From positions 1 through 48,918 of the forward strand of contig CALWPK010000009.1 in the NCBI GenBank assembly GCA_944383415.1: DNA of 48,918 bases, written 5' to 3'. Source of the stretch: an uncultured Clostridia bacterium (lineage in GTDB: Bacteria > Bacillota > Clostridia > Christensenellales > UBA1242). The notes beneath the pieces are model-generated. The model made no database searches and was not told the origin of the DNA. It saw nothing but the letters and a program-made list of their open reading frames with translations. The position numbers and the translations under genes are program-made. Numbering within the stretch: the first letter of the stretch is position 1; each line of letters starts with the position of its first letter. This document shows positions 1,386 to 48,917 of the stretch, piece after piece.

Positions 1386-1417
1386 ACGCTTATAGTTTAT
1401 ACTCGTTTCGGAGCGTA

Positions 1418-1458
1418 TGATTAAGAGTCAGTTGCTCTACCAACTGAGCTAATCGTCC
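1418..1458 (-). pseudogene. 5' half of a tRNA-Lys(CTT) copy
   Basis: On the minus strand the sequence from 1458 reproduces the D arm and anticodon arm of the neighbouring tRNA-Lys (loop CTCTTAA). It diverges after the anticodon stem and has no T arm or matching acceptor 3' strand. It sits upstream of the intact gene on the same predicted transcript. The 32 bases after it (1386-1417) hold a short imperfect hairpin that does not rebuild a T arm. Confidence 0.85.
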
Positions 1459-6719: not shown

Positions 6720-6856
6720 ATTTCAAAAACATACGTTAAAAAGAAAAAATAAAAGTGAAAAATGAAAAGAAAAAAGTACGAACAAAATAACCTCAAACAA
6801 GTTCTCGGATTATATCCAACAGGGCTCCCACGAGTGTCGTAAGATACGAAGTGGGA
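6720..6856 (+). repeat. Long direct repeat near tRNA-Arg, unit 2
   Basis: Second copy of the 6451-6605 unit, ending in a nested hairpin (6822-6856): outer stem TCCCAC/GTGGGA, inner stem CGTA/TACG. The inner stem sequence differs from unit 1 while pairing is kept. Confidence 0.6.
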
Positions 6857-6860
6857 AAAA

Positions 6861-6932
6861 GGAGTGACCGATTATAAACTCACTGATGCAATTTTATTTT
6901 AAAATTGCGGTGAGTAAAAATCGTGTCACTCC
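6861..6932 (-). repeat. 72-nt long imperfect hairpin on the tRNA-Arg 3' flank
   Basis: GGAGTGAC (6861-6868) pairs with GTCACTCC (6925-6932). Further inside, ACTCAC and GCAATTTTA pair with GTGAGT and TAAAATTGC. It starts 4 nt after the encoded CCA of tRNA-Arg. There is no following T tract, so it is not a standard terminator; it could guide 3' processing. Confidence 0.65.
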
Positions 6933-9439: not shown

Positions 9440-9834
9440 ATCGGTCTCCTATTATTAATGTTTGTTTTTGGTGTAAAATTTGGATGGGACAAAACGTGTC
9501 AATTGAGTTAGATTATCATAATACCTAGATTTTGTCAAGGGAATAAATTTTTGACTTTTATTAATGTCCTGCATATCTAAGTGAAAATTCATTAAAATTT
9601 TCTTTATTTTCCCTTCAAAGAAATTTTTTTAAGTTTTTTATCAAAAACACTTGTCTTTTTTTTTAATATGCTGTATAATAAAAAAGTTTCTAATTGAATA
9701 TCTCGATATGAATTTTACTTATTATAGTGAAGATCTCACGAGAATTAGTTTCAAGAAAGGAATAGGAGCAACTTAGTAAAAGGCGAAAATTGCAAAAAAT
9801 ATAGGCAATTGAGTAATTGCGAGAGTTGAGACGT
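9440..9834. other. Non-coding leader region of the tRNA-Lys/Leu unit
   Basis: No gene. After the promoter at 9651-9679 the RNA would carry a CTCACGAGAATT...AAGAAAGG segment (9736-9763) that resembles 10140-10170, and a perfect hairpin GCAATT-GAGT-AATTGC near 9814-9829, before the broken tRNA-Lys copy. Confidence 0.55.
9651..9679 (+). promoter_or_regulatory. Promoter of the tRNA-Lys/Leu unit
   Basis: TTGTCT (9651-9656) and TATAAT (9674-9679), 17 bp apart. No terminator is visible before 10571, so the RNA would include the broken tRNA-Lys, tRNA-Lys(TTT), the spacer repeats and tRNA-Leu. Confidence 0.65.
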
Positions 9835-9984
9835 GGTTCATTAGCTCAGTTGGTAGAGCAGATGACTTTTAATCAAGGGTGAGCGCGTTAAGAAAACAAT
9901 TAATAATTGTTTTTAGCAAGCGAACGGGAGCAATCTACGATTGCGGTCCGGTTCCGACAGGATATCCCGGGTTCCCGGGACACA
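9835..9984 (+). pseudogene. tRNA-Lys(TTT) copy split by a hairpin element
   Basis: Positions 9835-9875 match the first 41 nt of the intact tRNA-Lys at 10009 (two changes), through the anticodon loop CTTTTAA. The copy is then interrupted by an 81-nt element (9881-9961). A remnant of the T stem (9965-9980, CCCGGG-TT-CCCGGG) follows, with the T loop deleted. No acceptor 3' strand is present, so it cannot fold as a tRNA. Confidence 0.85.
9881..9961 (+). repeat. tRNA-inserted hairpin element, copy A (81 bp)
   Basis: Shares GCGTTAAGAAA (9885-9895), a following hairpin (AAAACAATT/AATTGTTTT, 9893-9913), a TTAGC...CGA..GGGAGC stretch and the end GACAGG with the element at 48707-48772. It has an additional perfect hairpin GCAATC-TAC-GATTGC (9930-9944). 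The shared hairpin has different stem bases in the two copies but pairing is kept. Confidence 0.7.
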
Positions 9985-10008
9985 TTATCTTAATAGTAAC
10001 ATAAATAT

Positions 10009-10084
10009 GGTTCATTAGCTCAGTTGGTAGAGCACATGACTTTTAATCATGGTGTCCCGGGTTCAAGTCCCGGATGAGCCACCA
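10009..10084 (+). tRNA. tRNA-Lys (anticodon TTT)
   Basis: 76-nt cloverleaf with encoded CCA. The acceptor GGTTCAT pairs with ATGAGCC (one G-T pair), and the anticodon loop is CTTTTAA. The upstream block TATCTTAATA (9986-9995) is shared with both tRNA-Gly(GCC) copies at the window end. Confidence 0.97.
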
Positions 10085-10459
10085 AACATTAGTCCATAGT
10101 ATAATGACTATAAACTTATACTGAACTTATAATATTCAAACTCTTGCGAGAATTTTAGTGTAAGAAAGAGGACTGGTCGCTAAATATTTACAATTGTGAT
10201 GAATATGAATAATTTAACATAAAGGCGACAATTCTTCAATTTCAACTTCTTAAAAAGGAAAAGAAGTAATGAAGGAAAGCGTCACAATGCGCCGTATAGT
10301 CAATTTGCTGACGCAAATATAGACCTTTAGGCGATTGTTCCTTTTCCCCACATCGACATTCGTCTTGTGGGGACCAAAAATAGTCCTTCATAGAAGTAAG
10401 TAATCAAGCAAAAGACTAAAACTTCACTAGTGATAATAGCATAGATTACGAAGTGACGA
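10085..10459 (+). other. Structured spacer between tRNA-Lys and tRNA-Leu
   Basis: No gene. It holds several potential hairpins: ACTTCTT/AAGAAGT (about 10245-10268), GCGTCA/TGACGC (about 10279-10315), and an inverted copy of the nested-hairpin family (10345-10373). It resembles 9725-9790 at its start. Confidence 0.55.
10345..10373 (-). repeat. Nested-hairpin repeat copy, minus orientation
   Basis: On the minus strand: TCCCCAC-AA-GACGAATGTC-GAT-GTGGGGA. Outer stem 7 bp, inner stem GAC/GTC with loop GAAT. It matches the copies at 12468 and 12568, including the exact run CAAGACGAATGTCGA. Confidence 0.75.
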
Positions 10460-12417: not shown

Positions 12418-12453
12418 AGTTTTGCGAAAGCAAAACGATAATAGAGGGCATAC
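12418..12453 (+). repeat. 36-bp repeat, left copy
   Basis: Identical over 36 bp to 12625-12660. It begins with the hairpin GTTTTGC-GAAA-GCAAAAC (a GNRA-type tetraloop) followed by GATAATAGAGGGCATAC. Confidence 0.9.
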
Positions 12454-12467
12454 ATCGTAAAAGAGTA

Positions 12468-12617
12468 GGGTTCTCGCAAGACGAATGTCGAAGTGGGAAG
12501 ATATGGGCAGAGTAAATGGGTTCCCACAAGTATCGTTAGATACGTCACGAGCATACTTGAAGAAACTGGGTTCCCGCAAGACGAATGTCGAAGTGGGAAA
12601 ATATGGGCTGTTGCCCA
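12468..12617 (+). repeat. Array of three 50-bp nested-hairpin units
   Basis: Units start with GGGTTC at 12468, 12518 and 12568, exactly 50 bp apart. Units 1 and 3 match over their first 41 bp with two changes. Unit 2 keeps GGGTTCCCACAAG but has another inner hairpin (GTATC-GTTA-GATAC). Units 1 and 3 fold as TTCYCGC / GTGGGAA around GAC-GAAT-GTC. Confidence 0.85.
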
Positions 12618-12624
12618 AAAAAGA

Positions 12625-12660
12625 AGTTTTGCGAAAGCAAAACGATAATAGAGGGCATAC
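12625..12660 (+). repeat. 36-bp repeat, right copy
   Basis: Identical copy of 12418-12453, in direct orientation, 207 bp away. Together they bound the 50-bp array. Confidence 0.9.
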
Positions 12661-41366: not shown

Positions 41367-43950
<2,584 letters not shown>

Positions 43951-48599: not shown

Positions 48600-48687
48600 T
48601 AAAATCTGCAATTGACCTACTAGAGTATTCTATCAACGTGAAAGTTAAATTTAACAGTTGTACTATCTTAATATTACAGTATACTAT

Positions 48688-48789
48688 GCGGGAGTGGCTC
48701 AGTGGGGAGTAGCGTTAAGAAACAGCAACGATTTGCTGTTTTAGCGTCAACGAGTGGAGCGTAGGCGACAGGGAGAGTGTTGCCGGCAA
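48688..48789 (+). pseudogene. tRNA-Gly(GCC) copy split by a hairpin element
   Basis: Starts as the intact tRNA-Gly (first 18 nt identical, through the D loop), then a 66-bp element (48707-48772) interrupts it. The anticodon stem remains as GTTGCC/GGCAA (48779-48789), but its loop is deleted, and no T arm or acceptor end follows. The 45 bases upstream are also duplicated before the intact gene. Confidence 0.85.
48707..48772 (+). repeat. tRNA-inserted hairpin element, copy B (66 bp)
   Basis: Shares GCGTTAAGAAA (48712-48722), the hairpin position (AAACAGCAA-CGAT-TTGCTGTTT, 48720-48741), TTTTAGC, a CGA..GGAGC stretch and terminal GACAGG with copy A at 9881-9961. GGGAG occurs on both sides, a possible target duplication. 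Confidence 0.7.
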
Positions 48790-48842
48790 TGCGATTGGTT
48801 GAATTTAACAATTGCACTATCTTAATATTATTGAATAAATAT

Positions 48843-48917
48843 GCGGGAGTGGCTCAGTGGTAGAGCGTTGCCTTGCCAAGGCAAATGTCGCGAGTTCGAA
48901 TCTCGTCTTCCGCTCCA
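48843..48917 (+). tRNA. tRNA-Gly (anticodon GCC)
   Basis: 75-nt cloverleaf with encoded CCA. The acceptor is GCGGGAG, and the anticodon loop TTGCCAA is closed by TTGCC/GGCAA. It is complete although it ends one base before the window edge. Its upstream block includes TATCTTAATA (48818-48827), with a likely TAATAT -10 box. Confidence 0.96.

What the first reader, a model, noticed from the sequence alone, without database searches (positions are those of the whole stretch)
9881..9961. A structured element inserted in a tRNA-Lys copy has a relative inside a tRNA-Gly copy, with compensatory stem changes
Copy A (9881-9961) and copy B (48707-48772) share GCGTTAAGAAA, a hairpin right after it, TTTAGC, a CGA..GGAGC block and terminal GACAGG. 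The hairpin stem reads AAAACAATT/AATTGTTTT in one and AAACAGCAA/TTGCTGTTT in the other: different bases, same pairing. Both sit inside broken tRNA genes directly upstream of an intact tRNA of the same type. Known small repeats (REP, MITE, RUP) are not described as tRNA-embedded in this way as far as I know; that novelty is inference.
Basis: partly seen in the sequence, partly recalled or inferred. Interest (0 to 1): 0.82.

Follow-up and report, generated by a model that had tools for sequence, protein, structure and literature searches.

The report
Hairpin elements embedded in tRNA genes
A short DNA element made of several hairpins, whose stems keep pairing while their letters change, sits inside broken tRNA gene copies next to intact ones in many gut Clostridia; it looks like an undescribed family of small mobile repeats that favours tRNA genes.

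Summary
A covariance model built only from copies in other genomes, at other tRNA genes, finds exactly two credible places in the window: copy A (69.9 bits, E 2e-16) and copy B (29 bits, E 1e-5). The genome has one more clear copy, beside tRNA-Asn. Relatives of the same genus (uncultured Clostridia including Candidatus Onthoplasma) carry dozens. Other models find it in 28 of 125 sampled genera of the order and 19 of 223 of the class. Stems covary strongly (63 distinct hairpin-1 sequences, 579 Watson-Crick pairs against 7 G-T and 5 A-C). In the genus, 39 of 47 copies abut at least 14 of 16 matching letters of a tRNA gene, and the others abut shorter or decayed tRNA pieces. Most sites share one plan: truncated tRNA piece ending in GG, element, short inverted copy of the adjoining tRNA arm, then a direct repeat (38-57 bp where perfect) leading into the intact tRNA. 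It is not in Rfam. No mobility enzyme was found linked to it. I read it as a new family of small structured DNA repeats (REP/MITE-like in behaviour, not a member of either). Its spread is shown by distribution; the mechanism is inferred.

The parts
9835..9879 (+). truncated 5' part of a tRNA-Lys(TTT) gene copy, ends ..AATCAAGG next to the element
   Evidence: 96% identical to 10008-10052 of the intact tRNA-Lys; 45-bp direct repeat ending at the insertion point
9877..9962 (+). copy A of the element: hairpin 1 (9893-9913, flanked by GCGTTAAG and TAGC), hairpin 2 (9925-9950), hairpin 3 (9952-9962, loop GACA)
   Evidence: model R3 trained on other loci: 9875-9967, 69.9 bits, E 2.1e-16; folds at z -2.9 as DNA
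9963..9982 (+). hairpin 4: TCCCGGG then CCCGGGACA, a copy and an inverted copy of the tRNA-Lys segment just beyond the insertion point (TGTCCCGGG)
   Evidence: sequence; same arrangement in most other copies
10009..10084 (+). intact tRNA-Lys(TTT)
   Evidence: ARAGORN and Rfam
48646..48705 (+). promoter region plus the first 18 nt of tRNA-Gly(GCC), direct repeat of the region running into the intact tRNA-Gly
   Evidence: 62-column direct repeat; sequence
48704..48772 (+). copy B of the element: hairpin 1 (48720-48741), conserved GCGTTAAG / TTTTAGC and terminal GACAGG
   Evidence: R1 (not trained on B) 53.4 bits, E 3.5e-10; R3 29.0 bits, E 9.5e-6; z -3.3 as DNA
48773..48792 (+). imperfect copy and inverted copy of the tRNA-Gly segment beyond the insertion point (GAGAGTGTTGCC / GGCAATGC; target TAGAGCGTTGCC)
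   Evidence: sequence, comparison with other tRNA-Gly sites
48843..48917 (+). intact tRNA-Gly(GCC)
   Evidence: ARAGORN and Rfam

Best explanation
The two copies belong to a family of about 75-110 nt non-coding DNA elements made of three hairpins. Hairpin 1 is a variable stem inside an asymmetric GTTAAG/TA loop; hairpin 2 has a variable stem above GGG-A/GG-YCC; hairpin 3 often has a GACA loop. The family is spread through Clostridia, most densely in the order of the window's organism. The element enters after a GG dinucleotide inside tRNA genes (D-loop or the 3' side of the anticodon arm in sense, T-arm in antisense) and occasionally inside other palindromic repeats. The carrier locus also holds a short inverted copy of the interrupted tRNA arm and a direct repeat that restores a complete tRNA gene, so the host keeps a working tRNA. 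I think it spreads as a non-autonomous DNA element recognised as a folded single strand by an enzyme supplied in trans, and that only insertions accompanied by the local duplication survive. Shown: family, covariation, tRNA targeting, GG junction, duplication and inverted copy, presence/absence between species. Inferred: DNA-level recognition and survival filter. Not shown: the enzyme, the order of events, current activity.
For: Independent model hits. Covariation: 5 of 10 hairpin-1 pairs changed on both sides in 10 copies, none on one side, 99% paired, 0 of 500 shuffles as high in covariation score; 8 of 20 pairs over hairpins 1 and 2. 63 distinct hairpin-1 sequences with 579 Watson-Crick, 7 G-T and 5 A-C pairs against 711, 36 and 1 in tRNA acceptor stems, so hairpin 1 shows no RNA strand bias. 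tRNA targeting: 39 of 47 copies in the genus match a tRNA gene with at most 2 mismatches over 16 nt at the junction, against 8 of 150 random windows drawn from the same tRNA-rich loci. Insertion after GG and restoration by direct repeats. Presence/absence at one locus: at tRNA-Val/tRNA-Gly some species carry it before Gly, others before Val. Near-identical multi-copy sets within a genome (13 hits in G275), tandem arrays at one tRNA.
Against: No enzyme was linked: reverse transcriptase (8 of 34) and Y1 transposase (7 of 34 genomes) do not track the element. Fixed-length target duplications expected of a transposase are not seen (perfect repeats of 38, 46, 48, 56, 57 bp). Conserved G-T in the base of hairpin 2 (8 of 11) would suit RNA. 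Many sites are orthologous between species, so part of the count is inheritance.
Confidence: 0.55

Rival explanations
1. The element is a recombination (attachment) site of tRNA-targeting integrative elements: a folded site recognised by a recombinase, working like an integron attC site. The loci are then scars or arrays of such sites, sometimes with cargo between two sites.
For: Intact tRNA, then element, then displaced tRNA 3' end plus terminator is the classical layout at integrated elements. Tandem arrays of three units occur behind tRNA-Arg. A 3.4-kb stretch with an HTH-AAA-CYTH gene and a 402-aa gene lies between two copies carrying tRNA-Ser ends (L236).
Against: No integrase was recognised at the loci read, though integrases were not searched genome-wide; the flanking repeats include local promoters or terminators like the host flank and vary in length; one copy interrupts an ORF with no tRNA seen nearby (L202); only one cargo case was seen.
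Confidence: 0.2
2. The element is a functional RNA tied to tRNA genes (decoy, processing or regulatory RNA) kept by selection on RNA structure.
For: Three hairpins with conserved asymmetric internal loops; G-T pairs at the base of hairpin 2; one hairpin-2 loop is CTTG, a stable RNA tetraloop (own knowledge).
Against: Both orientations relative to the tRNA occur; hairpin 1 shows no G-U excess; presence varies between close species; copies occur in non-tRNA repeats and in an ORF.
Confidence: 0.12
3. There is no mobile element: the loci are scars of template switching (tandem inversion duplications) at tRNA palindromes, and stems stay paired because palindromes are copied from themselves.
For: Most loci have the direct-inverted-direct order of such events; templated correction could give perfect stems without selection.
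Against: The conserved core (GCGTTAAG, TAGC, CGGGAG) recurs at unrelated tRNAs, in other repeats and in many genera, which local template switching cannot supply.
Confidence: 0.08

Closest known systems
REP / REPIN elements (GTAG-tagged, RAYT-mobilised) and CGTC-tagged palindromes including some Rickettsia palindromic elements (PMC3733652)
   Same: short non-autonomous palindromes with variable paired stems, many dispersed copies, occasionally inside genes
   Different: no GTAG or CGTC tag directly at the stem foot; several hairpins per unit; tRNA genes are the main target; duplication and inverted copy of the target; RAYT-like Y1 transposase absent from most carriers
MITEs
   Same: non-autonomous, hairpin-forming, dispersed
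   Different: no terminal inverted repeats of its own and no fixed short target duplication; the inverted repeat present is made from the target tRNA
Integron attC sites
   Same: site defined by structure more than sequence, with unpaired bases inside a stem; tandem arrays; one cargo-like case
   Different: no RYYYAAC...GTTRRRY boxes in the attC order; no integrase seen at the loci; local target duplication
tRNA-targeting integrative elements (phages, ICEs, islands)
   Same: tRNA gene restored, tRNA fragment displaced
   Different: the element is about 100 nt without genes, and also enters the D-loop from the 5' side
Tandem inversion duplications from snap-back replication (own knowledge)
   Same: direct-inverted-direct order around the site
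   Different: a conserved foreign element lies at the junction
Inovirus intergenic hairpins (IMG/VR L088, L089, L091)
   Same: GTAGCGTGAAGAAAA-stem-TTTTTAGCGT, same stem flanks
   Different: they lie in filamentous-phage intergenic regions with no tRNA junction; picked by pattern, so the resemblance may be chance

Membership tests
REP (GTAG/RAYT type) | GTAG or GGAG tetranucleotide at the foot of the palindrome | tested here: not met
   the stem foot is GTTAAG; GTAG occurs 6-7 nt upstream in one subtype only
REP (GTAG/RAYT type) | RAYT/Y1 transposase in the carrier genomes | tested here: not met
   PF01797 in 7 of 34 genomes of the genus; most carriers lack it
CGTC-tagged palindromes | CGTC tag at one end directly beside an 8-9 bp stem, with a short unpaired tail (mostly CCA) | tested here: not met
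   GACG precedes GCGTTAAG in order-wide copies but is separated from the stem by the loop
MITE | terminal inverted repeats and fixed short target duplication | tested here: not met
   direct repeats vary from 38 to 57 bp where perfect; inverted repeat is target-derived
Integron attC | R'' RYYYAAC and R' GTTRRRY boxes in inverted order | tested here: not met
   read from the consensus: GTTAAG lies on the 5' side, no matching 5' RYYYAAC box
Integron attC | integron integrase in the genome | not tested
   no integrase search was run
Known Rfam RNA family | score above a family's cut-off | tested here: not met
   on the element loci only tRNA reached its cut-off
Group I/II or archaeal-type tRNA intron | both exons of one tRNA flank the insert | tested here: not met
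   the 3' part of the broken copy is not downstream of the insert; a complete second tRNA gene is

The most novel reading that the evidence does not exclude
The element is the folded recognition site of an undescribed recombination or retro-insertion system in Clostridia that targets tRNA arms, builds tandem arrays behind tRNA genes and can capture cargo, each insertion rebuilding the tRNA through a templated direct-inverted-direct duplication.
Probability: 0.2. Interest if true: 0.88.

Novelty: new variant of a known kind. Interest (0 to 1): 0.72.

Why it matters
tRNA genes are classic landing sites for large integrative elements, but I know of no family of ~100-nt structured repeats in bacteria that lives inside duplicated tRNA pieces. 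One genome-wide hairpin screen removed tRNA-linked families by design (PMC2267715), which may help explain why this was missed. If mobile, it offers a natural, repeated experiment on how a cell survives insertion into an essential gene, and it yields an alignment from which the missing enzyme could be sought.

Tried and rejected
Patescibacteria as source: rejected; same-genus relatives are uncultured Clostridia including Candidatus Onthoplasma. tRNA intron: rejected, no downstream exon. Chance resemblance: rejected. Reverse transcriptase or Y1 transposase as mover: no correlation. Phage or plasmid carriage: no blastn match and no hit of an A-type pattern in viral contigs. Inovirus link: two permuted control patterns gave 0 hits against 4 for the real pattern, and model R3 scores the selected inovirus-like sites at 20-33 bits; since these were chosen by pattern, left open. 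Split tRNA-Ile(GAT) of this genome as an autonomous insertion: the 3' piece lies among ordinary genes, no mobile gene found. Some sequences in alignments A3 and A5 were retyped with small edits; A3 and A5 were not used for models or counts.

Full report
The observation. Copy A follows the first 45 nt of a tRNA-Lys(TTT) copy (9835-9879) and lies just upstream of the intact tRNA-Lys at 10009; copy B follows 18 nt of a tRNA-Gly(GCC) copy and lies upstream of the intact tRNA-Gly at 48843. GCGTTAAGAAA occurs exactly twice in the genome, at these two places. A third copy lies beside tRNA-Asn on another contig (C3:95369-95421, minus strand).

It is more than chance. I built model R1 from ten copies in which neither A nor B was included; in the window it finds B at 53.4 bits (E 3.5e-10) and A at 20.1 bits (E 0.008). 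Model R3 was built from eleven copies of other genomes, leaving out A, B and every tRNA-Lys site; it finds A at 69.9 bits (E 2.1e-16) and B at 29.0 bits (E 9.5e-6), with nothing else better than E 0.86. E-values from these short calibrations are rough, but the gap is large. Neither copy matches an Rfam family.

Distribution. A simple pattern hits 10 of the 33 other genomes of the same genus searched, besides the window's own, and none of the 26 genomes of other genera, with one match in total among the control patterns (the listed hit in G032 is a chance match without the element's context). R1 then found full-length hits at E 0.01 or better in about half of the 34 genomes; I read about 45 sites by eye. 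R2, built from the subtype of copy A, finds the element in 53 of 297 genomes of the order (28 of 125 genera) and in 25 of 391 genomes drawn from the class (19 of 223 genera). The record titles of same-genus hits are uncultured Clostridia and Candidatus Onthoplasma faecipullorum, placed in Christensenellales by NCBI.

Anatomy. The element starts after a GG inside the tRNA gene. Hairpin 1 has a stem with very variable letters between GTTAAG and TA, and short outer pairs that join into one long helix in some copies, such as CGTTTTGC/GCAAAACG in L198 and GGTTTTTGC/GCAAAAAACC in L224. Hairpin 2 is CGGG-A-stem-GG-YCCG. Hairpin 3 is a short stem, often with a GACA loop, in the copy-A subtype. In ten copies 99% of hairpin-1 cells pair, five of ten pairs changed on both sides and none on one side only; none of 500 shuffles reached the covariation score. 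Over hairpins 1 and 2 in eleven copies, 8 of 20 pairs changed on both sides. Sixty-three distinct hairpin-1 sequences, a few of them from the off-clade pattern hits, give 579 Watson-Crick, 7 G-T and 5 A-C pairs. tRNA acceptor stems read from the same loci give 711, 36 and 1. A stem kept at RNA level should tolerate G-U far more than A-C, as the tRNAs do; hairpin 1 does not, which points to DNA, or to palindromes copied from themselves. The base of hairpin 2 has a conserved G-T, which cuts the other way.

Target and junctions. In the genus, 39 of 47 distinct copies abut a stretch that matches an intact tRNA gene with at most two mismatches in 16 nt; 8 of 150 random windows from the same tRNA-rich loci do. 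The remaining eight abut shorter or decayed tRNA pieces, or a tandem unit. Insertion follows GG in the D-loop (GTGG|TAGAGC), after the anticodon arm (ATCATGG|TGTCCC) or, in antisense, in the T-arm (AGAGGG|ATTCGAACC). Downstream comes a copy of the next 8-12 nt, then an inverted copy of the same stretch, then a direct repeat of the flank and tRNA start that leads into the intact gene. Perfect direct repeats of 38, 46, 48, 56 and 57 bp were seen, so the length is not fixed. At 3' sites in other clostridial families the order along the tRNA strand is intact tRNA, terminator, inverted T-arm, element, displaced tRNA 3' end, terminator, and units can stand in tandem, three behind one tRNA-Arg.

Spread. 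At one tRNA-Val/tRNA-Gly locus, some species carry the element before Gly and others before Val. Within a genome, copies at different tRNAs can resemble each other closely. G275 has 13 model hits, nearly identical where read, and the sites read lie in one palindromic repeat. One copy interrupts an ORF (L202). These facts fit mobility, but gain within a species was not observed, and the collections hold one genome per species.

Mechanism. My preferred reading is a non-autonomous DNA element recognised as a folded strand, with survival of those insertions that come with a duplication restoring the tRNA. The order direct-inverted-direct resembles tandem inversion duplications formed by snap-back replication (own knowledge). 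Reverse transcriptase genes occur in 8 and Y1 transposase genes in 7 of 34 genomes of the genus and do not track the element; the window's genome has no reverse transcriptase match and one partial Y1 match. Integrases were not searched. The attachment-site reading is the main rival; one 3.4-kb stretch between two copies with tRNA-Ser ends, carrying an HTH-AAA-CYTH gene, is its best support.

Comparison with known kinds. REPs and CGTC-tagged palindromes (PMC3733652) are the nearest in behaviour, but the tag next to the stem and the RAYT association are not met. MITE features are not met, attC boxes are not met, and a tRNA intron is excluded. The literature searches returned no description of such an element; the library is partial, and one genome-wide stem-loop survey removed tRNA-linked clusters (PMC2267715). 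Hence: a new variant of the known kind 'small structured repeat', with an unusual target and locus plan.

Noticed in passing
window 9775-9834; G000:C4 ~43412-43471; L142: A second repeat, AGTAAAAGGCGAAAATTGC-hairpin-GCAATT..GAGAGTTGAGACG, ends directly before tRNA sequence in three places; it looks like another tRNA-linked hairpin element.
   Followed up: partly
window 1386-1458 (minus strand): A 5' half of tRNA-Lys(CTT) upstream of the intact gene, followed by ACGCT..AGCGT, perhaps a decayed copy of the element; G303 carries a clear copy at the same tRNA (L222).
   Followed up: partly
G000:C16 right end and G000:C12 ~35950 (minus): tRNA-Ile(GAT) appears only as a 5' part at one contig end and a 3' part on another contig; no intact copy and no tRNA-Asp or tRNA-Phe were seen, perhaps an assembly gap at repeats.
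   Followed up: partly
window 6790-6870, 10340-10380, 12440-12650: Another palindromic repeat family of the type CCCACTTCG..CTCGTGGGA / GGGTTCCCGCAAGACGAATGTCGAAGTGGGAA near tRNA genes.
   Followed up: no
L236:1000-4620 (G336:C33): Two copies with tRNA-Ser(GGA) ends enclose 3.4 kb with an HTH-AAA_28-CYTH gene and a 402-aa gene without Pfam match.
   Followed up: partly
L088:10349, L091:9899, L089:6690, L086:1654: Inovirus-like intergenic hairpins share GTAGCGTGAAGAAAA-stem-TTTTTAGCGT with the element; a like block is in Thiobacillus and Chitiniphilus contigs.
   Followed up: partly
L203-L211 (G275): Host palindromic repeat CCTCCCTTGTGAAAGGGAGGTGGCACGAAGTGCCGGAGGGATT carries the element after AAAGGG; empty and filled copies stand side by side.
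   Followed up: partly
L202:1501-1583 (G247): A copy interrupts an ORF resembling a ParB-like nuclease (..TVV / HQRLKVMKHLGY..), without a tRNA seen nearby.
   Followed up: no
L132: One copy at tRNA-Lys(CTT) carries about 35 nt extra, itself a hairpin, in the loop of hairpin 1: a possible nested insertion.
   Followed up: no
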